Shown here: positions 547 through 22,292 of the stretch, one piece after another
Position numbering within the stretch: the stretch's first letter is position 1
Layout of the letters: each line of letters opens with the position of its first letter
Assembly (NCBI GenBank): GCA_007859835.1
Contig: SJPJ01000001.1
Location: 409,134 to 473,133 of the forward strand
From: Novipirellula herctigrandis
Lineage (GTDB): Bacteria; Planctomycetota; Planctomycetia; Pirellulales; Pirellulaceae
DNA: 64,000 nucleotides
Direction of reading: 5' to 3'
The notes under the pieces: model-generated
The model's database searches: none
What the model was told of the DNA's origin: nothing
What the model saw: only the letters and a program-made list of their open reading frames with translations
Translations under genes and position numbers: made by a program

Positions 547-806
547 AACGACCTCCTGGACAAGACTTGATGAGCGAGAATTCTAGCACGAGCAAATCCC
601 AGCAGTAAGACAATTAAAAATGGATGGCTCCCTATTTCTCCATGGCCCCTTGTTTCTCCCTCTAAATGGATGGTGCCTTTTTCCCCTCTTCTTTTCTATG
701 TTTTTGGATGGCACCTTCTTTCGCCATGGCACCTTCTTTCGCCCCCCTTCTTTCGCTCTTCTTCTTTCCTGTAAGGCAATAGCGTTTGGATGGCCCCTTC
801 TTTGTC

Positions 807-893
807 TTTCTTCGCTCTTCTTTCGCTCTTCTTTCGCTCTTCTTTCGCTCTTCTTTCGCTCTTCTTTCGCTCTTCTTTCGCTCTTCTTTCGCT
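807..893. repeat. 11-bp tandem array (TTCTTTCGCTC)
   Basis: Six perfect copies of TTCTTTCGCTC run from 818 to 883, flanked by partial copies at 807-817 and 884-893. The surrounding 620-920 is pyrimidine-rich low-complexity DNA with scattered ATGGC(A/C)CCTT words. The 11-bp period shifts the frame at each unit, so apparent reading frames through it are artefacts. No gene is supported between 547 and 1260. Confidence 0.9.
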
Positions 894-1013
894 TCTTTTC
901 GATGGCCCCTTCTTTCTGCTCTTTCTTTTTCAGTTGATTGAAAGGCCAACACGATGGCGAGTTGACACAAGGTTTCGCAGTTGATGTCCGGGCACAAATG
1001 GTAGCCCAACAAC

Positions 1014-3714: not shown

Positions 3715-5868
3715 TTAGCCCTGACTTGGCCGCAGCAACGACTCATACCACCGATGCATTCGCACCCAGGCGAATTCGCCAATACTCACTTGCCGTAGCC
3801 CCAATATCGCGTAGCCTTGTTCTCCTGCACCTAAGTCTTGACAGGCCTCGGCCGACAGTGTGATCACGCCCCGAAATCGTGGTTCAACCAAACGCATACT
3901 TGGCTGATCGGAATCTTCCTTTTCAGTCACGGCTAATGGTCCTCCCAGGCTTGAACTCATCGCGGGGTGCGGTAGTGCGGTTGAGGCTCGCGGATCCAGT
4001 CGTTCCATTCTTCCTACCCGTGCGAGTCGACCTTTGATACGAAACCGTGTCTGATCGCCAATTTTTATCGCATCAATCTCCTCTTGACCAACGGACAGGA
4101 CGAGTTCCTTTCGCGTTTCATTCGCTACGGTCAATATCTCGGATCCCTCTTTGATGTACATGCCCGTCGATTGATGAAGGTTCCGTGCAACAATTCGACC
4201 CGCGACCGGCGCATGTACCCGTAGTCCTGCGGATTGGCGTCGAATGATGTTCAGTCGTTCTTCGATCGATTGCAAATTCCTTCTGGCGATCTGGGCCGCC
4301 GCAGCATTGTGTCTGTCGATCGCCATACGAACCTGAACTTCGCCCTGCTGATATTCAAGTTGAAGCGAGTGCAATTGGGCCTCAAGTTCGTCGTTGTGCA
4401 ACTCGACCAGCAGTTGTCCGGCCTCAACCATTTCACCATCCATGACATGGACATGATCGACAAAACCATTGACACTGCTACGAACAACCGACTGATCCGA
4501 GTAGTCAACGACGACGGGCGCATCCATCGCTCCCGGCCATGGTAGCCACAGCGAGGCCGCACCTATCACGACGACGATTGATACGCTGCAAACCAGTGCG
4601 CGAATAAACGAAGGTCGTTTTTCATGAAACCGCCGCTGAAAGTCGACAACGACTTTCCATAACGGCACAGCAAACCAACTGAAGACCCCAATGATCGCCA
4701 ACAGTAATCCTGCGCCGTGCATCAGAACCGATGCGGCAGAGACTAAAGAAACACAAACCAGCAACCGCCATACGGTACTGGCCACTCCATAACTGCAAAC
4801 GAACCAACGCCGAAAACCAAGTATTTGCAATGGACGATGTCTCTCGCCGAAAAATAGACGCGATGCGGTACCCTTTACAAAACGATTGGCGTCCGTGGCT
4901 AAATTGGGGACATTCAGTAGATCAGCAAGTATGTAGTACCCATCAAAACGCATCAACGGATTGGCATTGAACAGCAACGTGGACAGACTAGCCATCACGA
5001 TCACGTTAAATAGCAGGTGATGAGTCAACGACGAGTCGACGTTCGCCCAAGTGATCGCGGCGACCGCCGCAAGAACCAGTTCAGCATACATGCCTGAAAT
5101 GGCAACATGAATTCGTTGCCACTTTGACGGGAAACGCCAACAAGAGGTAACGTCGACATACGCCATCGGCGCAAGCAGAATAAAAATGACTCCGGTCTCA
5201 CGTACTTCGCCCCGGTGATATTTGCAGGCTAATCCATGCGCCAACTCGTGAACAACCTTCAAAACCGCCCAAGCAAGCAGCATCCACAGCCAATTGTTAG
5301 GTGCCAGCACGCCAGCGGAGCTAGCGATAAATTTCGTCCAGTTTGTGGCGGCGCAACCAACACCGAACAGAATCACAATGATTCCCACCATTGACGCTAC
5401 GGGCGACAATAACCAGCCGAATGATGGAAGCAAAGCCGCCAGTAATTGGTCCGGCGATCCCAGCGGGATCTTCATCCAGAAAGGGTTGACTCGATTCGTC
5501 AATCCGCCGCGTTGATTGTTGTTCATTTGTCGGCGAGGCGACCACACGGATTCTTGATCCGCGAGTTCGGCGATATCGTTTTCAATCACCCAGGTCGCCA
5601 CTTGAAGGCCCTGCGATTGCGTGAGTGCTTCTGCGCCTAATGTGCGGGCAGTGATCGTCAAAGCCTGAGCAACGGTCCTGGTCCCATCGAGCATCGAGAT
5701 AAACACGTACTCGGGATAGCCAATTCGAAAGAACTTTCCCGCCGCCGGCACTTCGATGTGATAGTAAGTTTCCTGGCCATGAACTTGTGGCACAAAGGTC
5801 AATTCACACGCCAACCTGATTTTTGAGCCGCTTAAATCACGTGTCGTTAAGTCTGGGACGATGGTCAT
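3715..5868 (-). CDS. M50 (site-2-type) membrane metalloprotease fused to HlyD adaptor (717 aa)
   Basis: Starting at MTIVPDL, residues 1-100 form a PqqD-like winged-helix-type region (weak call). Membrane segments follow, with zinc motif HELAH at about 207-211 and the second M50 motif NPLMRFDGYY near 305. More membrane helices run to about 430. A biotinyl/lipoyl hairpin (SSVNGFVDHVHVMDGEMVEAGQ), a coiled coil and a second lipoyl half (HAPVAGRIVARNL) then make a periplasmic adaptor. The expected role is an inner-membrane component of an exporter that may also process substrate or a partner. I chose the ATG at 5868 rather than 5892 because the latter would overlap the previous gene by 20 bp. It is the last gene of a five-gene minus-strand cluster. 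A true protease activity is inferred from the intact HExxH. Confidence 0.85.
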   Translation of the reverse strand: MTIVPDLTTRDLSGSKIRLACELTFVPQVHGQETYYHIEVPAAGKFFRIGYPEYVFISMLDGTRTVAQALTITARTLGAEALTQSQGLQVATWVIENDIAELADQESVWSPRRQMNNNQRGGLTNRVNPFWMKIPLGSPDQLLAALLPSFGWLLSPVASMVGIIVILFGVGCAATNWTKFIASSAGVLAPNNWLWMLLAWAVLKVVHELAHGLACKYHRGEVRETGVIFILLAPMAYVDVTSCWRFPSKWQRIHVAISGMYAELVLAAVAAITWANVDSSLTHHLLFNVIVMASLSTLLFNANPLMRFDGYYILADLLNVPNLATDANRFVKGTASRLFFGERHRPLQILGFRRWFVCSYGVASTVWRLLVCVSLVSAASVLMHGAGLLLAIIGVFSWFAVPLWKVVVDFQRRFHEKRPSFIRALVCSVSIVVVIGAASLWLPWPGAMDAPVVVDYSDQSVVRSSVNGFVDHVHVMDGEMVEAGQLLVELHNDELEAQLHSLQLEYQQGEVQVRMAIDRHNAAAAQIARRNLQSIEERLNIIRRQSAGLRVHAPVAGRIVARNLHQSTGMYIKEGSEILTVANETRKELVLSVGQEEIDAIKIGDQTRFRIKGRLARVGRMERLDPRASTALPHPAMSSSLGGPLAVTEKEDSDQPSMRLVEPRFRGVITLSAEACQDLGAGEQGYAILGLRQVSIGEFAWVRMHRWYESLLRPSQG

Positions 5869-5872
5869 ATTA

Positions 5873-7324
5873 TCACCAACCCAGCCACGCAATGGCGGCC
5901 GTCATCGGTCGACGAAATACGTTCCAAATCAGTGGATAACGATCCGCTTCAATCCGCGCCGTTCCCTTCATACCAGGCCGAAGGTCCATTTTGGAATCTT
6001 GCAGTCGGACTTCCGCGACAAACACGTTCTGGTCGTCGCGCACCTCGGCGCGTGGATGAACTCGCTCGATCGATGCATCAAAACGGCTAAGCGGATACGC
6101 ATCAAGTCGTACGGTGACCGCCATTCCCGCACGGACATAGGCAAACTCGTCTTCGACGATACCGACCTCGACAACCATCTCATCAAGCGGGGCTATTTCA
6201 AATAGCGTTTTCCCAACTTCCAGCGGCATACCCTCGGCATCTTTCAAATCTCCACTGACCACCACACCGGCGATCGGACTTCGGATGTCAACGTTGTGTT
6301 CGCGGTACTCAAGCAATTCAGTACGCTTTTGCAAACGGTCAACCTCATACCGTGCGACCTCTGCCTCACCCGATTTCTGCGTGGCTAAGTGTCCGGCCCG
6401 TTCCTTACTGGCACGGTGCAAATCCGCTCGAATTCCTGACAACTCCATCCTTACCTCACGGCCGTCCATCTGTGCCAACAATTGCCCCTGCTCGACAATA
6501 TCTCCTGGTTCGACGAGCGATTTAGCCAAAGAACCGGCAAAGGGTGCCGCCACGAATCTCCGCAAGACGGGTTCGACCGTGCAATCGCACTTTGCCTGAT
6601 AGTGCAACGGAAGGCATAGGATCACAGTGACAAATAAAATCGCAGCCAACAATGATAGCCGGCCCTTTTTCTTAACCCATTCTCGAGCACTCTTGATCGT
6701 CTTCTCAACCGAACCCTTTTCGGAGCGAGTCATCAATTTTAGTGCCGATGCAACGGAAGGCCCCGCTGTTTCTAAAAATTTGGTAACCGTTGTAGCGTGA
6801 ACCCCTTTTGCATTGCCAGTCACCAACCAGGCACCTCGCAATTGCCCGCTTGCATCACGTAGCGGCGCACTGACAATTGCCTCCACGTTGGCAAGCTTTG
6901 CAAATTGCCGGTGCGCAAGTTGCCCACCCGCATAGATTTCGTCGTGGCTCGGCCAACCGATGGATCCGCCAAAAGCGATACATTCCTGCAGACAGGCCTG
7001 AGCAGACCGGGCTATTTCGCCCTGTTGATCAAATGTCGCAACGCCTGAGACGGCGGTGAGCCGACATTCAATCGATGCATCGCGACACAAGCCAACAAGG
7101 ACTTGTTCGGTTGCTAGAAAGCCTTGTAATTGATCGGCAAGAACTTGACACGAGGCATGTAAGTCTTCGCTGGATTCCATTCGAGCAATTAACTCGCTCA
7201 AGGCGGCCATCTGCCTGAGTTGCTCGCGAAGCTGCGTGGTCTCTGACAAGGCGCGATGTTCACGTTGCGGAGTGACTAGCGGTACTGCATTGGCAGGTTG
7301 ATTCGGAGCATACTCGACCGTCAT
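5873..7324 (-). CDS. GAF-domain/HlyD fusion adaptor (483 aa)
   Basis: Residues about 35-200 look like a cytosolic GAF sensor domain (LSELIARMESSEDLHASCQ to a helical end), followed by a basic linker, one transmembrane segment (LSLLAAILFVTVILCLPLHYQ) and a periplasmic HlyD/membrane-fusion domain with lipoyl halves (AAPFAGSLAKSLVEPGDIVEQGQ and SPIAGVVVSGDL), a coiled coil and a beta-barrel. The start is the second of two close ATGs, because GGAGG lies 6 bases before it but abuts the first. The stop is 4 bp before the start of the M50-adaptor gene, so the two are probably co-translated. GAF domains bind small ligands or take part in dimerisation; having one on an adaptor suggests that export is gated by a cytosolic signal (inference). 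Confidence 0.85.
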   Translation of the reverse strand: MTVEYAPNQPANAVPLVTPQREHRALSETTQLREQLRQMAALSELIARMESSEDLHASCQVLADQLQGFLATEQVLVGLCRDASIECRLTAVSGVATFDQQGEIARSAQACLQECIAFGGSIGWPSHDEIYAGGQLAHRQFAKLANVEAIVSAPLRDASGQLRGAWLVTGNAKGVHATTVTKFLETAGPSVASALKLMTRSEKGSVEKTIKSAREWVKKKGRLSLLAAILFVTVILCLPLHYQAKCDCTVEPVLRRFVAAPFAGSLAKSLVEPGDIVEQGQLLAQMDGREVRMELSGIRADLHRASKERAGHLATQKSGEAEVARYEVDRLQKRTELLEYREHNVDIRSPIAGVVVSGDLKDAEGMPLEVGKTLFEIAPLDEMVVEVGIVEDEFAYVRAGMAVTVRLDAYPLSRFDASIERVHPRAEVRDDQNVFVAEVRLQDSKMDLRPGMKGTARIEADRYPLIWNVFRRPMTAAIAWLGW

Positions 7325-7355
7325 GTCCATCCTCCATTGTCATCTCGACGGGGCA

Positions 7356-8210
7356 CTACGGATGTTTTGCAGCTAGAGGTGAGTATGTATCAGCGAAGTC
7401 TAGATAACAGGTCGTACCGCAGTGAAGTCGCTCGTCAGGATTTGGCAATCGGACTCGCACACGTGTTGTACCACTTTGCGGATCGATCGTTGGCGACACG
7501 AACTCAATCGAACCGGAGGCCATATGAGTTGGGTCCATAAAGCGTACGTTAACCGCCCTCCCGACCGAAAGCTCTCTCGCTAAGTCAGCGGGAACCAAAA
7601 AGATGACCAACAACGGGTCAAGCTGGACAACGCGGACGATCACTGGATCACTCGGCAAAACCGACTCGCCACAATCTCTGAGTACCCGCGTAACCACTCC
7701 GTCGATGGGCGAACGAAGGCAGCGTTTCTCAAGTTGGACGAGTGTGCGTTCATACTCAAGTGTCTTTACTTGAAGCTCTTCTTGGATCGCTTTTAAGTTG
7801 GCTTGGGCGATTCGTCTCTTCGATTCCGCTCGATCGAGTTCTTGCGAGCTAGCATGTTTTCGTGCGATCAACTCGTTAAGTTTCTTAACAGTGATGGTTT
7901 GCTGGTGCAAATCCTCCATCGCAGACTCTAGCCGACCACGGGATTGCTTGATACTTTTCGCGATCTCAAGTGTCACTTCGAGTACCGAGTCATCCATCTG
8001 AACCAATAGCTGATTCTCGGTAACACGGTCACCTTCTTTAATGTGGATTGCTTCGACAATCCCCATTTCGGAAGCCGCGACGTCAATATCTTGATAGGGT
8101 TCCGTGAACCCTTGGATTTCAGTCGCTGGCGAGCATGACACCCAACAAACCATTGTCGCGCAGACGAAAGTCCGGCGAACGAGGCATCGAATTGAAAGCG
8201 TGGAACTCAT
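7356..8210 (-). CDS. HlyD-family periplasmic adaptor, probable lipoprotein (284 aa)
   Basis: The start MSSTLSIRCLVRRTFVCATMVCWVSC gives a signal sequence ending in a VS-C lipobox-like site; the frame is open further upstream to 8318 but that stretch is not signal-like. The mature part has a lipoyl half (GIVEAIHIKEGDRVTENQL), a long coiled-coil hairpin (about residues 90-170), the second lipoyl half (SPIDGVVTRVLRDCGESV) and a membrane-proximal barrel (PTIDPQSGTTRVRVRL). It is a standard membrane-fusion protein linking inner-membrane parts to a TolC-like channel. It ends 31 bp before the GAF-HlyD gene. Confidence 0.85.
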   Translation of the reverse strand: MSSTLSIRCLVRRTFVCATMVCWVSCSPATEIQGFTEPYQDIDVAASEMGIVEAIHIKEGDRVTENQLLVQMDDSVLEVTLEIAKSIKQSRGRLESAMEDLHQQTITVKKLNELIARKHASSQELDRAESKRRIAQANLKAIQEELQVKTLEYERTLVQLEKRCLRSPIDGVVTRVLRDCGESVLPSDPVIVRVVQLDPLLVIFLVPADLARELSVGRAVNVRFMDPTHMASGSIEFVSPTIDPQSGTTRVRVRLPNPDERLHCGTTCYLDFADTYSPLAAKHP

Positions 8211-8424
8211 CTTAAGTTTAGATTGTATCGTCGTAGAACGTGAACGAACTTCTTGACTGCACCATAGCAGCGAGTGGTAACTTTGGCTTAATGATTCGGG
8301 GGCAGATTTGATGTGCACGTCGCATCGTCATCAGTTGCCATCTGACAACATGTGGACGCAGGTGGTGTGATTCACAAACAATTCATTTCTTGCTCGATTA
8401 CATAAACTACTGCTGAAAGCTAGC

Positions 8425-10341
8425 TTACGAATCAGTCATTTGAGAAGAAAATAGTGAATCACGTGACAGGTCACTTCGGAGTAAACCGCACCGAGAAGAA
8501 TAGGCGACACGCTCAGCGGACCGCTGAATGCGGCGTACTTGGCCTGCAAAATCAATTTCTGCCTCACCATCGGAACCCGCATGGCGCTGAATCGAAGAAA
8601 TCAGCCACGATCCATAAATTTTGATCAACGGATCCTCCGCAGAAACGAAGACTTGCGTGGACCCCGGGTCGCCCTGCCTAGCACATCGACCGATGAGTTG
8701 TCTATCAACGCGTCCGGATTCACTGCACTCGCAAACAACGACATGCAACCCCCCCAGAGGCAGTGCGTCCGGACCAAGTTTGATGTCGGTCCCGCGACCT
8801 GCGAGGCTGGTAGCAATCGTAACGGCACCACGAGAACCCGCTCGACCAATAACATCGGCTTCTTCAGCATCTTGTCGGCCATTGAGAATTTGAAAATTCA
8901 AACCGCGTTCGCTCAACAAATCTGCCAGACGCTCACTGTCGGCGATACTGGTCGTACCAATTAAGATGGGGCGTTCTTGGGAGTGAATTCGCTCGACGCT
9001 ATCGGCAATCGCATTCCACTTCGTTGACAAGGTGGCAAAGAACCTTGTTGGCCAATACTCTCGCCGCGAAGGTGTCCGAAGTCGAATCGGTACAACGCGA
9101 AGGTCATAGACTTGCCGCATTTCTCGCTCGCATCCGGTTGCTGTTCCCGTCATTCCCGCTAGTCGTTCGTAGAGACGCGAAAATCGTTGGCGAGTGATTT
9201 GAGCGAGTGAGCTCTTTTCCGGTGTAATCCTCACGCCTTCTTTGGCCTCAATCGCTTGATGAAGGCCTTCGCGCCAGTTCCGATCGCTGAAGATGCGGCC
9301 CGTGCTGGGATCTACAATCTGGACTTCACCCTCATCCGTGACGACATAGGAAACGTCACGATGCAAACTCATGGCGTGTAAAGCATGTTCAACATACTCG
9401 GTCCAAGTACGCCGAAGTTGTTCAATCGGAATGCGACTCTCACCGCGGTGGATCCAAGCTCTCCCGGATTCGGTTAACTCAATACGCCCCGTTGCTGCGG
9501 CGGGTCGAAAATGTTCACCGGTTGTTAGACGATTGACCGCTTCTAGCGCAGCACGGTGCACCTCGGCGTCGTCCGCTTCGCCCTCTGCGTTCCCGCTGAG
9601 AATCAACGGCGAGGCCGCATCGTCAAGCAGCACATTGTCAGCTTCGTCAACGATGGAGTAGTACAACTCTCGCTGGATCATTGCCCCGGCACTTGGTGAG
9701 TTGCCAATGAGCGACTCGAGAGTCGCGTCTCCCAATTTGCAAGTCGCACCTTGTCGCAGCGTAAGCTGATCTCGCAAATAGTCGAATCCGAACTCAAAGC
9801 CAGTTCCATAGGTGATATCACACCGATAGGCTGCACGTTTGGATGCCGGCGACCCCTGATTATTCGGCAGGAGCCCAATACGAATGCCAAGCATTTCATA
9901 AGCGGGTTGTAAGATCTCAAAGTCACGTTCCGCTAGGTATTGATTGGTCGTCGCAACGTGAACACCGCGTCCAGTTAACGCGTGCAGAAAAGCTGCGGGT
10001 GCACACGCAAAGGTCTTTCCTTCGCCGGTCTGCATCTCGGCCACGGCACCTTTCGCCAAAGCCATTGCTGCGAGCATTTGCACATCATAAAGGTGAATGC
10101 CTCGCGTGCGGCGCAGTGCTTCGCTCGCAATTGCAAACGCCTCGCGCCGCACCGCCTCGGTATCGACCGATTCGATCTTGACTCGCGATCGAAGCTGTTC
10201 GGATTGTTCACGCAACTGTTCAATCGACAGACCTTTTAGTCGCGTTTCTACTTCGCGGATGGCAGCAACGATGTCTGTTTTCCGCGTCAAACCAGCAAAA
10301 GGAAAGATGTTTCCGCTGATGCGAGAAAGGAATTGGTTCAT
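8425..10341 (-). CDS. SecA-like ATPase lacking the C-terminal translocation domains (638 aa)
   Basis: The order of SecA motifs is clear: an N-terminal helix, Walker A QTGEGKT, the TTNQYLAERD and YGTGFEFGFDYLRD blocks, Walker B VDEADNVLLDDA, a peptide-crosslinking domain (about 230-370), DGLHQAIEAKEGV-type segment (WREGLHQAIEAKEGV), GMTGTA, then NBD2 with TSLAGRGTDI and IGRCARQGDPGS. The protein ends within the first helical-scaffold segment, without the helical wing, two-helix finger or zinc tail of the 850-900 residue housekeeping SecA. I took the ATG at 10341, which overlaps the stop of the previous gene as ATGA; a TTG six bases earlier is possible. In this cluster it is the only obvious motor. 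Whether it works with SecYEG or the adaptors is unknown. Confidence 0.9.
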   Translation of the reverse strand: MNQFLSRISGNIFPFAGLTRKTDIVAAIREVETRLKGLSIEQLREQSEQLRSRVKIESVDTEAVRREAFAIASEALRRTRGIHLYDVQMLAAMALAKGAVAEMQTGEGKTFACAPAAFLHALTGRGVHVATTNQYLAERDFEILQPAYEMLGIRIGLLPNNQGSPASKRAAYRCDITYGTGFEFGFDYLRDQLTLRQGATCKLGDATLESLIGNSPSAGAMIQRELYYSIVDEADNVLLDDAASPLILSGNAEGEADDAEVHRAALEAVNRLTTGEHFRPAAATGRIELTESGRAWIHRGESRIPIEQLRRTWTEYVEHALHAMSLHRDVSYVVTDEGEVQIVDPSTGRIFSDRNWREGLHQAIEAKEGVRITPEKSSLAQITRQRFSRLYERLAGMTGTATGCEREMRQVYDLRVVPIRLRTPSRREYWPTRFFATLSTKWNAIADSVERIHSQERPILIGTTSIADSERLADLLSERGLNFQILNGRQDAEEADVIGRAGSRGAVTIATSLAGRGTDIKLGPDALPLGGLHVVVCECSESGRVDRQLIGRCARQGDPGSTQVFVSAEDPLIKIYGSWLISSIQRHAGSDGEAEIDFAGQVRRIQRSAERVAYSSRCGLLRSDLSRDSLFSSQMTDS

Positions 10342-12314
10342 TCGCAACTCACTCGCAAAAGAGTCCCCATTTCGCGTTTGAGTCGGACGAGTGCCAAAGC
10401 GTAACTGACCTGCGCGGTAACCATACCTTGTTCATCGTCGGCGACGCGTTCCTGGGCATCAAGCAGATTCTCTAATAGCTGAGCGGCTGAATCGTTTTCG
10501 TTCGGAAGCACTCTCCATCGATCGTTAAGGTAGTTGGCCTCATTCTGGGCTGCCTGCATTGATCGATGTTTCGCCACGACTTCAAGGTAACTGGTTTGGA
10601 CTTCTCGGACGGCCACTTCGACACTTGTTAACGCTTCCTCCACCGTCAAGCTAAATTGACTCATCGCTTGATTGAGTTCCCATTGACGTCGGTTTGCCTG
10701 TGCTTTCGACGCTCGATTGCCAATTGGGATTTCAAACTGCAGTCCAACCGAATAGGAGGGCCGGCCATCCGAGAACTGATTTTCGTAAGCTCGCCCATGG
10801 TCCGATGCGGCGGCAAGCCCAGCAACATAGGTACTGGCTACCAAATCAAGCTTGGGCAAGATGTCTTTCTGGGCCACGCCAAGCTTAACCGAAGCGTTCT
10901 TAGCATCACGAATCGCCTGCGAAATATCGGGACGATTTTGTAACGCCGTGTGCAATGAGTCAGACATTGACAGCTGAACTTGCCAATACAGTGGCGACTC
11001 GATCGGCATGAGTTCTCGGTGCCCCATGTGCACTAACGCAGGATCGTTTACGAGTAGTCGTAGTTGGGATTGCCAATTACGAATACGCGTTTCCGCCCGC
11101 AGCATCTCTGATTCTCTCGTTGCGACGGCCGTTTTTGCCCGCAGCACTTGACGCTCGACAGCATCGATATCGCGGCGTCCTTCGAGATTGGCCAGTATGC
11201 TTCTGGCAGAATCAAGGAGCTTTTTGCGTTGAAGAAATTTAGCGCGTGTTTGGTACAACTCCCAATAGGCTTCCGTCACTTGCACCAAATGTTCTTGCAA
11301 TTCGCCTGCGACAGCATCACTGCTTCGGTTCCGTTGAATCCGAGCGGAGACGATTTGGCTCTCGTTATAGGCTCGACCAGCTCCACGAAGTAAGGGCTGC
11401 GTGTACTGTAGTTCCAAACGGGTTGCTCGTTGTGGATTCGGAACCAAGAAACGAGAATTGTCTTCCTCGCGTCCTAAACGCTGGTAAGCTTCGAGATTTC
11501 CGCCAAACGTGTTCTTGCGACGTAGACCAGCCTCGACGGACCAGCCTCGGTTACGATATCGCGAAGCATCCGTGCCGGTTGTCAACGTGCTTCCAATCGG
11601 ATCGTTCACATCGTCGTAAGTCGTTTCAAGAAATGCCTGCCAATCAAAGGCTGCAGACTCTTTGACAAGTTCCGATTGGCGAATTGCAGGGTCCGCCGAG
11701 ACAACACGAACGTATGATGAATACCGCAGCGCGTTGGTAGTCAAAGCAGCAATGCCAACATGTAGTGGCTCGCTGCTTGGTCCTAACGGATGCCGGACCT
11801 GCTCGTCCCACCATGGCCTATCGGAGGCCAATAAACCTGCACTCGTGTCACTCACCCACCATCGCGGCGTCTGATCAGATTCGACCCGTGATTGAAAGTC
11901 CCTCATCCACGATTGCCCCTCGCATGTTCCATTCGCGCGAACACTACGATTCGCTGCGTCCACTGCGGGCGAAGGTGGAACCACTATCCCATCGGGAAGA
12001 TTTAGGGTACTGAAACCGTCTTCCCGATCCAACAAACCCAGATCTACCGAGCTATGAAGAATTTGGTCAGACGGGGCAAAACTTTGAGAGCTTTCAAACG
12101 CCAAAACTTCTTCCCACGAGATAGCGGGATCGCCTAAAACGCTCGTATTGACATGTTTTTCGACATGCAGATTGCTTTGAACCGGAGCTTCAAAATTGGA
12201 CTGGGCGTTTAAATTCGTGCATACAGTAACAATCAACAAAAACCCAAGAGCAAGTGCTGTTGCCGTAGAACGTCCGTTTCTCCAGCCAGAAGCTGTCATT
12301 CTATTCGATTCCAT
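10338..12314 (-). CDS. TolC-family outer-membrane channel (658 aa)
   Basis: A signal sequence (TATALALGFLLIVTVCTNLNAQ) is followed by a long low-similarity stretch of about 220 residues and then two outer-membrane-efflux repeats. Their signs are TRLELQYTQPLLRGAGRAYNESQI, long alpha-helical hairpins (LQEHLVQVTEAYWELYQTRAKFLQRKKLLDSARS, and a second set near 540-640) and PIGNRASKAQANRR. The family forms trimeric outer-membrane ducts for tripartite exporters. The size is larger than the usual 450-500 because of the extra N-terminal region. Two ATGs, at 12314 and 12299, are both possible. It is the first gene of the cluster, overlapping the SecA-like gene by ATGA. Confidence 0.87.
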   Translation of the reverse strand: MESNRMTASGWRNGRSTATALALGFLLIVTVCTNLNAQSNFEAPVQSNLHVEKHVNTSVLGDPAISWEEVLAFESSQSFAPSDQILHSSVDLGLLDREDGFSTLNLPDGIVVPPSPAVDAANRSVRANGTCEGQSWMRDFQSRVESDQTPRWWVSDTSAGLLASDRPWWDEQVRHPLGPSSEPLHVGIAALTTNALRYSSYVRVVSADPAIRQSELVKESAAFDWQAFLETTYDDVNDPIGSTLTTGTDASRYRNRGWSVEAGLRRKNTFGGNLEAYQRLGREEDNSRFLVPNPQRATRLELQYTQPLLRGAGRAYNESQIVSARIQRNRSSDAVAGELQEHLVQVTEAYWELYQTRAKFLQRKKLLDSARSILANLEGRRDIDAVERQVLRAKTAVATRESEMLRAETRIRNWQSQLRLLVNDPALVHMGHRELMPIESPLYWQVQLSMSDSLHTALQNRPDISQAIRDAKNASVKLGVAQKDILPKLDLVASTYVAGLAAASDHGRAYENQFSDGRPSYSVGLQFEIPIGNRASKAQANRRQWELNQAMSQFSLTVEEALTSVEVAVREVQTSYLEVVAKHRSMQAAQNEANYLNDRWRVLPNENDSAAQLLENLLDAQERVADDEQGMVTAQVSYALALVRLKREMGTLLRVSCE

Positions 12315-17758: not shown

Positions 17759-20700
17759 CTACTCGGCCGACTCATCCTTAACGTCACCTGTTTCCAGCGG
17801 GGATGGAGTCTCCGCCGCAGCTGAAACGGCTGGCTTTTCCTTTCGCCACTCGGCGAGTCGTTGGAAGACAACGAAGAAAGAAGGGACGAACAAGAGTGAG
17901 AAGACCGTTGCTGCAATCATCCCACCGACAACGGCGTTGCCGACGGATTGGCGACTCGCTGCTCCCGCACCGGTTGCAATTAGAAGTGGAAGGAAGCCAA
18001 GAATAGACGAGAATGCGGTCATAAGAATGGCACGAAAACGCATCGTCGCAGCGTTGAATGCCGCATCGCCGATGGAAACGCCCTTGCGTCTCTCTTCGCT
18101 GGCAAACTCCACGATCAAAATTGCATTTTTACTGGCCAATGCGACCAACAGCACGATTCCGATCTGCGTGTAAGTGTCGTTTGGCATGCCACGAACCACG
18201 AGTGCAAGGACAACGCCGAGCACCGCCAACGGCACGACGGCGATCACCGCAGCGGGGCTAGTCCAGCTTTCGTATTGCGCGGCTAGAACGAGGAATACCG
18301 CGACGACCGCTAACAAGAACACGGTCGCTTGACCGCTACCCGCCAGTTTTTCTTGAAACGAGATCCCTGTCCAGGCGTGACCGAATCCGGGCGACATCCG
18401 CGAATCAGCCATTTGCTCCATCAGATTTAATGCTTCTCCGGAACTTGTGCCTGGTGCAGCCGCGCCATTGATCGCGGCACTGGGATACAAGTTGTATCGC
18501 CGTACCACCGAAGGTCCGAAGTTTTCTTTTACGTCAACGATCGCACCTAGTGGAACCATCTGTCCCGTATTATCACGCACATCCAAATCCGCAATGTCAT
18601 CCGCTGAGGCGCGGAACTCGGCCTCCGATTGAACGCGAACTTGGTAGGAGCGATTGTTGTAGGTGAAGTCGTTAACGTACGCCGAGCCAAGGTAAGCTTG
18701 CAGCGTGCCAAACACGGTTTCCAAAGGCACGTTCATGTTCTTTGCCTTCACACGATCGACATCCGCGAACAACTGCGGCGCGTTGGCCCGAAACGCAGAG
18801 TTCAATCCCGATAAACGACTTTGAGCATTCCCGGCGTTGGCAAGATCGTCCGCCGTTGCCTGCAATGATGCGTATCCCCCGCCACCTTGGTCGAGTACCT
18901 CCAATTGAAAACCGCCAGCCGCTCCGAGGCCGTCGATCGCCGGGGGCGCAAACGCAAACACCACCCCGCTTTGGATCTTACTGAATCGCTGCTGTAAGTT
19001 TGCCTGGATCGCAGCCAGACTTTTATCCGAATCGGTTCGTTCGTCCCACGGCTCCAAGATGATGATCGACAAACCTAGGTTCGATCCAGCATAGCCACCC
19101 AGCAATGAGTATCCGGCAATCGATAGGTTGTTCGAAATTCCTGGGACTTCGCTATAAACCTCTTCCAATTGCCGCATCACGGCTCGCGTCCGTTCGGCGG
19201 AAGCAGAATCAGGCATTTGCACGTTAACGAACAAGTATCCCTGATCTTCATCCGGCACAAATCCGGTTGGCAGTGAGGAAAAACCGACGCCCGTGCTGCC
19301 AACCAAAGCCACGTAAGCCACCATCACCATTAGCACCAAACGCACGAACCATCGGATCACGAACCCGTACGCCGTAGTCGATGCGTCAAATCCTCGGTTG
19401 AACCAACGAAAACCAATGAAGGACGACTCTTTGGGGGCTCGCAGAATCAGTCCACACAACGCGGGGCTAAGCGTCAGCGCGTTGAGTGTGCTGATCAGAA
19501 CGGCACCTGAGATCGTCAACGCAAATTGACGGAAAAGTTGGCCAGTAATTCCCCCCATGAATGCGCTGGGAACAAACACAGCAAGCAAAACGAGTGTCGT
19601 TGCAATCACCGGCCCCGTGATTTCCGACATCGCTTTGACAGCCGCGTCTTTCGGACTCAGGCCATTAGCAAGATGCCGCGTCGTATTCTCGACAACAACA
19701 ATCGCATCATCCACAACAATCCCGATTGCCAAAACGATCGCGAAGAGCGACAGCATGTTGATTGAAAAGCCGATCATATTCATGATCGCAAAGGTACCAA
19801 TCAACGAAACGGGGATCGCCACAACGGGAATGATTGTCGCCCGCCAATCTTGCAGGAAGACGTAGATCACTAGAACCACCAACAACACTGCGATCATGAG
19901 CGTGTTGTAGACTTCTGCTATGGATGCTTCCACAAAAAGCGTTGTGTCGAACCCAACCACGTACTGCAGTCCGTCCGGCCAATTGTTGCTCGCGCTGAGC
20001 TGCTTCATTTTTTCTCGTACCAATTCCGCGGTCGTGATCGCGTTGGCATCGGGAAGCTGGTAGATCGCGATGGATGCGGAAGGTTGCCCATTGAATCGCG
20101 AATCAAACGTATAATCTTTCCCCCCCAACTCGACACGTGCAACATCCTTCACTCGCAACGCGCGTCCATCACTGGCCGTAGTGATGATAATGTCTTCGAA
20201 CTCCTCTTTGGTCGCTAATCGCCCGCGTGCACTGACAGTCAACTGATAAGCGGTTCCCTCGGGCGCAGGCGGTCCGCCGACTTGGCCGGCGGCGACTTGC
20301 ACGTTCTGTTCACGGATGGCGGCAACAACGTCGGCGGTCGTCAAACTCCGTTGTTTGAGCTTGCGCGGGTCCAGCCAGATTCGCATGCTGTAGTCACCGG
20401 TACCAAACACTTGAACCTCGCCGACTCCACCCACGCGGCTAAGTTCGTCCTTGACCGTTAGCGCGTAGTTGCTCAGGAAGAGGTCGTCATAGTCGCCCTC
20501 GGGTGAAGTCAAGGCAATGAATTGAAGAATTTGCGTCGATTGTTTCTTTGTCGTAATTCCCTGAGAACGAACCTCGGAGGGCAATTGGGATTCAGCAATG
20601 GCGACTCGGTTCTGGACCAGTACGGACGCGATGTCGGTATCCGTCCCCACTTCGAATGTCACCGTTAACTTGTAGCTCCCATCGTCCGAGCTGTTCGATG

Positions 20701-20935
20701 ACATGTAGATCATGCCTTCGACGCCGTTGACTTGTTGTTCGATCGGCGTCGCAACCGTATCGGCGATCGTGCGAGCATCCCCGCCCGGATAGACTGCCGA
20801 GACGCTAACGGTTGGTGGCGCAATCGGCGGGAATTTGGCAACCGGCAACGATCCGAACGACACGATCCCCGCGATCACAATAATGATGGAGATTACCGAG
20901 GCGAAAATCGGGCGATAAATAAAGAAGCGTGACAT
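17759..20935 (-). CDS. HAE1-type RND multidrug efflux pump (1058 aa)
   Basis: From [23 protein letters not shown], the length and 12-helix pattern match AcrB/MexB. The TM4 proton-relay pair is present in [18 protein letters not shown], and [32 protein letters not shown] and [15 protein letters not shown] are typical HAE1 blocks. It is a proton-driven pump in the inner membrane for drugs, dyes or lipophilic compounds. The frame stays open upstream to 21154, but this start restores the conserved N-terminus and leaves 22 bp after the adaptor gene. The C-terminus is acidic ([10 protein letters not shown]). No outer-membrane channel is linked. Confidence 0.93.
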
Positions 20936-20957
20936 CAGGTGATTGCATTCTTTCGAT

Positions 20958-22292
20958 TCAGTCGACTTCGGAAGGACTCGTCGCACTGACGTCAGTAGCA
21001 ACGTCAGGCAGATCATCAGCAGGCGAGAATCCTCGCAGCAGTGTTTGCTCGTCAACCTCAAGTTTCTTGTCGATCGGATTGACTTCCAAGCCAGGTCTTG
21101 CTCGTTGGATTCCATCGACGACAACGCGGGATTCAAGGGCGAGCCCCTTTTCAATCACGGTCCAACCACTGATTGTTTCGCCAACCGTGACGCCAACACG
21201 TTCCACTTTTCGCTTGGCATTCACAACCAACACGTAGTGGCCTTGTTGGTCGCGAAGTACGGCGTACTCTGGAATCAGCATCGACTCGACCGAATTGCCA
21301 CCCGGCATACGAACCATCACAAACAATCCCGGCAGAAGCGAGTCGTCACGGTTGTCAAATTGGGCACGTAGTCGAAGGGTTCCTGTACCCGCATCCACTC
21401 CTTGCTGGTCGACATATTCCAGCACCCCTTCGAAGGGGAAGCCTGCATCGAATTCGCGTTGCAGAAAAACCTTCGTTGTGCCCCAATCGGTTTCGGCGGG
21501 CTTCTCGCCAGCCTGTAAATCCGCTTTTTTCTCTTTCATGAATCGAAGCAAGTCACGATCACTGATGCTGAAGTTCGCGAACACTTGGCTCCGATTGACG
21601 ACCGCCGCCAATTTTGCACCGTCTTCGACAAGATTGCCTTGCTTGATATCCGTTGGCGAGATCCGACCACGAATCGGCGCTTGGACGGTCGTGTAGTCTA
21701 GATCCAATTGTGCTTGGGCGAGACTCGCAACGCTCTGTCCCTTCGCCGCGAGCGCTGCTTCTACGTTCGCTTTCGCAGATTCCAAGGCAGCCAAAGCAGC
21801 TTCATTTTCGGCAGTCGCGGTATCAAACTCTGCCTGCGAACCAGCATTCTGGCTGAGAAGCTGCTTCGCGCGTTCAAAATCCTTATCCGTCTTTCTCGCT
21901 TTCGCCTCCGCCGTTTTCACCACTGCGTTGGCAACGCTGATAGCGGCTTCGGCAGCGGCAACTTCCGCCGTAGCTGAGTTCACCGACGCTTGGTACTGAG
22001 TCGATTCGATTTTGTACAGAACATCACCCCTGGTGACTTCTTGTCCAGCTTTAAATTCAACCGATTCGACAAATCCCCGAACGCGAGCCCGAACGTCAGC
22101 TTCATCTACCGCTTCGATGACACCGTTTTCCTCCAAAAATGGCGTGATCAATCGCTGAAGGGGCTGAGACACCGTCACGTCCGGCGGTGGTGGCGGCACA
22201 TAGTCATTTTCCGACGACTTACAGCCGATTACACCGGAACCCCATACCACAATCAAAAGGACAATGAACGCATCCGATTTTAAGATTCTCAT
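20958..22292 (-). CDS. RND periplasmic adaptor lipoprotein (444 aa)
   Basis: A lipoprotein signal ([13 protein letters not shown], lipobox IG-C at about residue 24) is followed by a Pro-rich stretch, lipoyl half [21 protein letters not shown], a long Ala/Glu/Lys coiled-coil hairpin (about 105-190), the second half [18 protein letters not shown], a barrel and a membrane-proximal domain. This is the AcrA/MexA type. It precedes the pump gene by 22 bp and is certainly its partner. The pair probably borrows a TolC-like channel from elsewhere. Confidence 0.92.

What the first reader, a model, noticed from the sequence alone, without database searches (positions are those of the whole stretch)
3715..12314. 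Tripartite-exporter-like cluster with a SecA-type ATPase as its only evident motor
Five minus-strand genes in order encode a TolC-like channel, a SecA-like ATPase, an HlyD lipoprotein, a GAF-HlyD fusion and an M50-HlyD fusion. ATGA overlaps and gaps of 4-31 bp tie most of them together, although the gap after the SecA-like gene is about 214 bp. Known tripartite systems use an ABC, RND or MFS pump; none is here. Three adaptors and a SecA relative suggest a new way to drive substrate across both membranes, perhaps with intramembrane cleavage. This is the strongest candidate for an undescribed system in the window.
Basis: partly seen in the sequence, partly recalled or inferred. Interest (0 to 1): 0.88.

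Follow-up and report, generated by a model that had tools for sequence, protein, structure and literature searches.

The report
SecA-linked exporter for giant proteins
This five-gene cluster belongs to a known but uncharacterised type I-like secretion locus that carries a shortened SecA motor instead of the usual pump; comparing many genomes ties it to very large surface-type proteins with a short shared N-terminal tag, which gives it its first likely cargo.

Summary
The five genes are as described, and a second complete copy in the same order lies elsewhere in the genome. The cluster is not undescribed: Kamneva et al. 2015 (PMC4452313) reported it and proposed the same motor swap, with no cargo named. 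The SecA-like protein keeps its ATPase motifs but stops just after the second nucleotide-binding domain. New here: the exporter travels with giant LEPR-XLL / DUF4347 proteins in two phyla. In Planctomycetota 41 of 42 genomes with such proteins carry M50-HlyD, against 40 of 301 others; in a proteobacterial sample 46 of 48 against 36 of 241, with at least 36 of 75 LEPR-XLL genes within 12 kb of it. Relatives of the M50-HlyD protein have a PqqD-like domain (13 of 26) and its protease residues are invariant, suggesting a leader-reading, leader-cutting exporter. Against SecA as sole motor: four planctomycetes picked for low SecA counts have cargo and exporter but only long, canonical SecA, and an E. 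coli plasmid version shows no SecA in the stretch read. Cargo assignment is strong; mechanism is inferred.

The parts
10338..12314 (-). TolC/OEP outer-membrane channel gene, 658 aa, with an N-terminal hydrophobic segment
   Evidence: (PF02321)
8425..10341 (-). truncated SecA-like ATPase gene (ATG start; ORF opens at TTG 10347): NBD1, PPXD, NBD2; ends about 40 residues into the part that aligns with the start of the scaffold domain
10012..10026 (-). Walker A GEGKT of the SecA-like protein, invariant in 22 of 22 aligned SecA proteins
9247..9567 (-). preprotein cross-linking domain (PF01043) kept in the SecA-like protein
7356..8210 (-). HlyD-type periplasmic adaptor gene (ATG start; ORF opens at GTG 8318)
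5873..7330 (-). GAF-HlyD gene: N-terminal region (GAF matched in 12 of 21 family members, not in this one), one membrane segment, adaptor arm
6593..6670 (-). single hydrophobic segment of the GAF-HlyD protein
3715..5868 (-). PqqD-like/M50/HlyD fusion gene (ATG start; ORF opens at TTG 5892)
5563..5823 (-). PqqD-like N-terminal domain, candidate leader reader
   Evidence: PqqD matched in 13 of 26 members at E up to 1, best 1e-7; not in the window protein itself; secondary structure of the model
5236..5250 (-). HExxH zinc-protease motif; H215, E216 and H219 invariant in 26 of 26
4939..4968 (-). second M50 motif NANPLMRFDG; N309, N311, D317 and G318 invariant in 26 of 26
4534..5442 (-). membrane region of the M50 domain, eight hydrophobic segments by hydropathy
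3793..4530 (-). periplasmic HlyD arm; the whole model matches MacA, MexA and AcrA type adaptors

Best explanation
The cluster is one of two complete copies in this planctomycete of the 'secondary SecA / type I-like' locus of Kamneva et al. 2015. Most likely it is an exporter for giant surface proteins that carry a short N-terminal leader with the motif LExR-phi-phi-x-A (the LEPR-XLL domain), often followed by DUF4347. Proposed mechanism: the PqqD-like domain of the M50-HlyD protein recognises the leader on the cytoplasmic side; the truncated SecA-like ATPase pushes the unfolded chain; the multi-spanning M50-HlyD, with GAF-HlyD as sensor and partner, forms the inner-membrane port and may cut the leader; the HlyD adaptors and the TolC channel carry the chain out. 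Shown: gene content, conservation, invariant catalytic residues, truncation of SecA, statistical and physical linkage to the giants, and no Sec-like hydrophobic stretch by simple hydropathy in 35 of 38 tagged N-termini. Inferred: that the giants are the cargo, leader reading, leader cleavage, the pore, and the motor role.
For: Linkage to cargo, 343-genome Planctomycetota sample: LEPR-XLL 30 of 31 with M50-HlyD, strong DUF4347 (E <= 2.3e-20) 14 of 14, union 41 of 42 against 40 of 301; 16 of 16 LEPR-XLL families are among the 31 exporter-positive of 96 families. Proteobacterial sample of 289: 46 of 48 against 36 of 241, and at least 36 of 75 LEPR-XLL genes within 12 kb of M50-HlyD (rough chance upper bound 2.3). 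28 of 36 exporter-bearing genomes from non-planctomycete groups have LEPR-XLL (36 of the 80 loci, some already known to have the tag next door). Motif beside the exporter: 32 of 1316 ORFs in 116 loci fetched for M50-HlyD, 0.8 expected by shuffling; among ORFs of 800 aa or more 22 of 106, 0.07 expected (pattern relaxed after inspection). Named example: Methylosinus sp. C49 plasmid, giant gene with LEPRVLLNA (NF012209, E 8e-8), DUF3467, GAF-HlyD, PqqD-M50-HlyD, SecA-like, adaptor, TolC. Motor: ATPase residues invariant in 22 of 22; SecA-like gene within 10 kb in 62 of 116 loci and beside M50-HlyD in four proteobacterial genomes picked from the best hits. Protease residues invariant in 26 of 26. 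PqqD matched in 13 of 26.
Against: G155, G005, G094 and G126 have cargo and exporter but only one SecA, of canonical length (picked for low SecA counts). The 'two or more SecA' counts are too high, since the two matches in G094 and G126 are pieces of one gene. 54 of 116 M50-HlyD loci lack a SecA-like gene within 10 kb (some end early). The E. coli plasmid version shows none in the annotated stretch. 40 of 81 exporter-positive planctomycete genomes show no cargo by the two models. RTX repeats, a mark of ordinary type I cargo, occur in the C-terminal parts of two of four plasmid giants beside this exporter (10 and 6 nonapeptides), and one Vibrio LEPR-XLL giant is reported with C-terminal RTX and serralysin domains (passage of PMC10868602). 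One plasmid giant has no tag at its annotated start. No cargo gene lies in the window; its cargo would have to be among the six LEPR-XLL genes elsewhere in the genome. Eleven genomes with weak DUF4347 hits show no association (4 of 11). Three of 38 tagged N-termini carry a membrane-type helix.
Confidence: 0.6

Rival explanations
1. Same exporter and same giant cargo, but the chain crosses the inner membrane through SecYEG driven by housekeeping SecA, with the SecA-like protein only an accessory (chaperone, targeting or regulation); the HlyD/TolC parts finish export across the outer membrane.
For: Four genomes with cargo and exporter have only a canonical-length SecA (picked for low SecA counts). 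The SecA-like protein lacks the scaffold/two-helix-finger region that canonical SecA uses on SecYEG (the role of the finger is recalled) but keeps the preprotein cross-linking domain.
Against: 35 of 38 tagged N-termini have no Sec-like hydrophobic stretch (hydropathy only); the SecA-like ATPase residues are invariant and the gene is on the same strand as M50-HlyD in 59 of 62 loci.
Confidence: 0.22
2. The cluster exports a peptide or small molecule, like RiPP systems with PqqD and M50 parts, and the giants are linked only through a shared surface lifestyle.
For: The best NCBIfam match of the M50 protein is the daptide maturation protease (167.8 bits, below its cut-off of 300); PqqD domain in relatives.
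Against: At least 36 of 75 LEPR-XLL genes lie within 12 kb of M50-HlyD, 21 of them 1.0-2.9 kb away; co-occurrence holds in two phyla. Short precursor genes were not searched for.
Confidence: 0.1
3. The TolC/HlyD/M50/GAF set belongs to an ordinary efflux complex powered by an unlinked RND or ABC pump (for example the RND pump at 17759-22292), and SecA is a passenger.
For: An AcrB-type pump with its own adaptor lies 5.4 kb away; an ABC-2 type pair lies next to the second copy on the other strand.
Against: RND genes in 3 and ABC genes in 5 of 116 loci; SecA-like genes in 62 of 116.
Confidence: 0.05

Closest known systems
Secondary SecA_DEAD / type I-like locus of Kamneva, Poudel & Ward 2015 (PLoS One 10:e0129066, PMC4452313)
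   Same: Same gene families: SecA_DEAD without SecA_SW, GAF-HlyD, M50-HlyD, HlyD, sometimes OEP; no ABC gene; same proposal that SecA supplies energy and M50 the pore.
   Different: Their main text names no cargo and does not hold the words PqqD, cadherin, adhesin or cargo (supplements not read). The link to LEPR-XLL/DUF4347 giants, the PqqD-like domain and the exporters without SecA-like gene are added here.
Type I secretion system (HlyB/HlyD/TolC; Lap-type for giant adhesins, recalled)
   Same: HlyD adaptors plus TolC channel; giant repetitive proteins; RTX repeats in two of four plasmid cargos.
   Different: No ABC transporter in the cluster; shared tag at the N-terminus; 0 of 21 complete tagged ORFs have three or more RTX nonapeptides.
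SecA2 systems of Gram-positive bacteria
   Same: A second SecA dedicated to special surface proteins (recalled); the best solved matches by sequence are SecA2 chains 6t4h_A and 6sxh_A.
   Different: Those chains are 781-786 aa; the scaffold/wing part is missing here, and the partners are HlyD/TolC.
RiPP maturation M50 proteases with PqqD-like leader readers (daptide, YydH/LiaK)
   Same: M50 part related to the daptide and YydH/LiaK proteases below their cut-offs; PqqD folds read leader peptides in RiPP enzymes (recalled).
   Different: Fused to an HlyD arm and linked to giant proteins instead of short peptides.

Membership tests
Kamneva 2015 secondary SecA locus | SecA_DEAD protein lacking all or most of SecA_SW | tested here: met
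Kamneva 2015 secondary SecA locus | adjacent GAF-HlyD, M50-HlyD and HlyD genes, OEP gene in some | tested here: met
   GAF by family relation only
Kamneva 2015 secondary SecA locus | SecA-like protein falls in the secondary-SecA clade of a SecA tree | not tested
   no tree built here; identity 36-47% to 18 cluster-linked SecA-like proteins, 37% to the genome's canonical SecA
Type I secretion system | HlyD-type adaptor and TolC-type channel | tested here: met
Type I secretion system | ABC transporter in the locus | tested here: not met
   none in the window cluster; ABC within 10 kb in 5 of 116 related loci (one ABC query)
Type I secretion system | RTX repeats in the cargo | tested here: inconclusive
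   0 of 21 complete tagged ORFs; but 10 and 6 nonapeptides in two of four plasmid giants and a Vibrio case in print
SecA2 systems | second SecA with intact ATPase motifs | tested here: met
SecA2 systems | scaffold/wing domain | tested here: not met
RiPP-type leader-reading M50 protein | PqqD-like domain | tested here: inconclusive
   13 of 26 family members at E up to 1 (best 1e-7), not the window protein itself; plasmid relatives match; the domain's fold was not searched on its own
Active M50 protease | HExxH plus second metal-ligand Asp | tested here: met
   invariant in 26 of 26

The most novel reading that the evidence does not exclude
A separate class of secretion system for giant proteins: an N-terminal LExR-phi-phi-x-A leader is read by a PqqD domain, cut by a fused M50 protease, and a chain of up to more than 10,000 residues is pushed in one step through a membrane port, HlyD ring and TolC by a SecA-derived motor that no longer needs SecYEG, with no ABC pump.
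Probability: 0.4. Interest if true: 0.88.

Novelty: new member of a known kind. Interest (0 to 1): 0.64.

Why it matters
Bacterial genomes hold frames of 5,000 to nearly 20,000 codons that start with this tag (largest seen: 19,427), and how such proteins leave the cell is unclear. LEPR-XLL was named in only two papers found, without a role in export in the passage I saw. Tying the tag to an exporter found in at least two phyla makes the function of a locus known since 2015 testable, and asks whether a SecA-derived motor can work without SecYEG.

Tried and rejected
Rejected: 'undescribed system' (Kamneva 2015). Rejected: an ABC or RND pump as a conserved part (5 and 3 of 116 loci). Not claimed: that the window copy serves a particular giant; no tagged ORF was found in the window, and four DUF4347 and six LEPR-XLL genes lie elsewhere in the genome. 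DUF4347 alone as cargo mark: weak hits (11 genomes) showed no association. The motif patterns were shaped while I looked at the loci, the relaxed one more than the strict one (23 of 1394 ORFs, 0.6 expected), so the NCBIfam model counts are the untuned evidence. One search mixed in loci fetched for the motif and is not used. A background of 87 ORFs from four stretches gave one relaxed hit, in L006. The fold search of the M50-HlyD model showed only adaptors or chains of tripartite pumps in its best 50 rows, so it says nothing on the PqqD part. The orphan SecA-like genes in L006 and L008 have no exporter in the 20 kb read. I first wrote that the cargo lacks RTX repeats; a check of four plasmid giants showed them in two, so that row is now inconclusive.

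Sampling limits: the 116 loci are 36 that I picked from the hits, before the tag was searched for, plus the best 80 of 554. SecA-like lengths include fragments and one frame of 1240 codons. The 38 N-termini and the 21 ORFs include loci fetched for the tag or for DUF4347. The M50-HlyD list was cut, so 36 of 75 is a lower bound; gene ends there are estimated from open-frame lengths, and which gene fills the gap was not checked. Proteobacterial M50-HlyD counts use a query from L147 at E <= 1e-20. The 36 genomes leave out four non-planctomycete loci (L100, L123, L155, L161). Genomes were picked, not sampled. Fisher tests ignore kinship; family counts address it only in Planctomycetota. MFS pumps were not searched for.

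Papers: PMC4452313 read in parts 1-5 of 7 plus a word search (supplements not read); PMC8277102, PMC10868602 and PMC8262886 as passages; all others only as search listings. That the cargo link is not in print rests on searches, which cover open-licence papers only.
Full report
What is there. Pfam and NCBIfam support TolC/OEP, SecA-like, HlyD, an HlyD protein with an extra N-terminal part, and an M50-HlyD fusion. A GAF domain is not called in the window's own protein but is in 12 of 21 aligned family members. The genome carries five SecA_DEAD genes: one canonical SecA of 1238 aa with wing and scaffold, and four short ones without a SecA_SW match. One of these is in a second complete five-gene cluster in the same order on another contig (L007); two are orphans. 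A third M50-HlyD set, with TolC, HlyD and GAF-HlyD but no SecA beside it, lies at C1:1.78 Mb (L044).

Already described. [quoted passage not shown] They left cargo and function open (supplements not read). The window cluster meets their gene-content definition.

Anatomy. The 21 short SecA proteins aligned match canonical SecA through NBD1, PPXD and NBD2 and then stop about 40 residues on; Walker A GEGKT, the DExD box, AGRGxDI and GRxxRxGxxG are invariant over all 22. The ATPase is expected to work, but the two-helix finger, wing and C-terminal linker are gone. The M50-HlyD protein has an N-terminal domain that Pfam calls PqqD in 13 of 26 members (best E 1e-7), eight hydrophobic segments, an HExxH and a second Asp-Gly motif invariant in 26 of 26, and a periplasmic arm that matches MacA/MexA/AcrA type adaptors in the predicted model (mean pLDDT 84).

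Linkage of SecA. In 116 loci fetched by an M50-HlyD match, a SecA-like gene lies within 10 kb in 62 (38 of the 70 with at least 6 kb on both sides), on the same strand in 59 of 62; GAF-HlyD in 98, HlyD in 78, TolC in 32, RND in 3, ABC in 5.

The cargo. Next to the second cluster copy a divergent gene of 3971 codons starts with LEPRILFSA and a DUF4347 domain. In 343 Planctomycetota genomes, M50-HlyD (E <= 1e-20) is in 81, LEPR-XLL (NF012209) in 31, strong DUF4347 in 14. Thirty of 31 LEPR-XLL genomes and 14 of 14 strong DUF4347 genomes carry M50-HlyD; union 41 of 42 against 40 of 301 (p = 3.5e-29, kinship ignored). Eleven genomes with weak DUF4347 hits show nothing (4 of 11). By family, 16 of 16 LEPR-XLL families are among the 31 exporter-positive of 96, and in complete genomes it is 25 of 26 against 32 of 155. 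Eleven of 22 strong DUF4347 genes lie within 15 kb of an M50-HlyD gene, 0.24 expected. A sample of 289 genomes from the phylum of a gammaproteobacterial hit gave 46 of 48 against 36 of 241 (p = 3e-28), with at least 36 of 75 LEPR-XLL genes within 12 kb, 21 of these 1.0-2.9 kb away, and frames up to 19,427 codons. Twenty-eight of 36 exporter-bearing genomes picked from Verrucomicrobia, Proteobacteria and others have LEPR-XLL.

The tag. Beside the exporter the N-terminal motif reads LExR-phi-phi-x-A. With a strict pattern 23 of 1394 ORFs match (0.6 expected by shuffling); with a relaxed one 32 of 1316 (0.8 expected), and 22 of 106 ORFs of at least 800 aa (0.07 expected). In the alignment of 25 DUF4347 proteins the E is invariant and L, R and A nearly so. 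Thirty-five of 38 tagged N-termini lack a strong hydrophobic stretch; three have one. Three cargo proteins scanned carry cadherin, Ig, lectin, laminin-G or Calx-beta domains. RTX nonapeptides are rare in the tagged ORFs of the loci (0 of 21 complete ones have three or more) but present in the C-terminal parts of two of four plasmid giants. DUF4347 has an invariant His and Cys and a predicted caspase-like fold (150 of 235 residues at pLDDT 90 or more; best solved match 9qpe_G, itself a DUF4347 protein, then caspases), so it may be a protease that processes its own protein; this is inference. PA0256, a Pseudomonas protein with DUF4347, is called a putative antibacterial type VI toxin in PMC8262886 (passage).

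Named examples. Methylosinus sp. C49 plasmid pMSC49a has a giant gene (8,847 aa, LEPR-XLL E 8e-8), DUF3467, GAF-HlyD, PqqD-M50-HlyD, SecA-like, adaptor and TolC in one direction. Pseudosulfitobacter pDSM107133_a has a 12,737-aa Ig protein (LEPR-XLL E 7e-9) before DUF3467, GAF-HlyD, PqqD-M50 and SecA-like. An Alisedimentitalea plasmid has an 8.1 kaa 'calcium-binding protein' with RTX repeats and no tag at its annotated start, before GAF-HlyD, PqqD-M50-HlyD and SecA-like. An E. coli plasmid has a 4,459-aa protein with the variant tag LESRQLFDG (by eye; NF012209 does not match) and DUF4347 (E 2.7e-18), then TolC, two HlyD proteins and M50-HlyD, without SecA in the stretch read.

Against SecA as the motor. 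G155, G005, G094 and G126, picked because one search suggested few SecA genes, have cargo and exporter but only one SecA of canonical length. In G397, G665, G521 and G384, picked from the best proteobacterial hits, a short SecA is directly beside M50-HlyD. So the short SecA is a frequent, not universal, part; housekeeping SecA may serve elsewhere.

Verdict. My own odds: cargo link about 0.85; SecA as motor where present about 0.6; leader reading and cutting by PqqD-M50 about 0.4.

Noticed in passing
window 17759-22292 (-): Complete AcrB-type RND pump with its own adaptor, 5.4 kb from the cluster; RND genes beside only 3 of 116 related loci.
   Followed up: partly
L007:12567-13271 and alignment A2: DUF4347 looks like a caspase-like cysteine protease: invariant His and Cys in 25 of 25, model matches 9qpe_G, caspase-7 and legumain; also a sequence match to chain 11xu_A1.
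   Followed up: partly
G439:C115:112865: A LEPR-XLL open frame of 19,427 codons in a proteobacterial genome; several others of 10,000-15,000 codons.
   Followed up: no
L185, L189 (E. coli plasmid NZ_CP081770.1): Enterobacterial plasmids carry a relative with no SecA in the stretch read: 4,459-aa Ig protein with a LExR-like tag and DUF4347, TolC, two HlyD proteins and M50-HlyD.
   Followed up: partly
L006:9993-12155 and L008:8633-10375: Two orphan short SecA genes in the window's genome with no exporter in the 20 kb read; L006 has a LExR-tagged ORF with an LTD domain (and a sub-threshold PA14) 6.6 kb away, L008 a Ser/Thr kinase next door.
   Followed up: partly
L183:9421-9762 and L184:11696-12016: A small DUF3467 gene sits between the giant gene and the GAF-HlyD gene in two alphaproteobacterial plasmids; possible chaperone or adaptor.
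   Followed up: no
L072, L074, L075: Some planctomycete tagged proteins have a membrane-type helix before the LExR motif.
   Followed up: no
window 662-1012 (-): Low-complexity frame that reads as repeated KKSERRAKEER.
   Followed up: no
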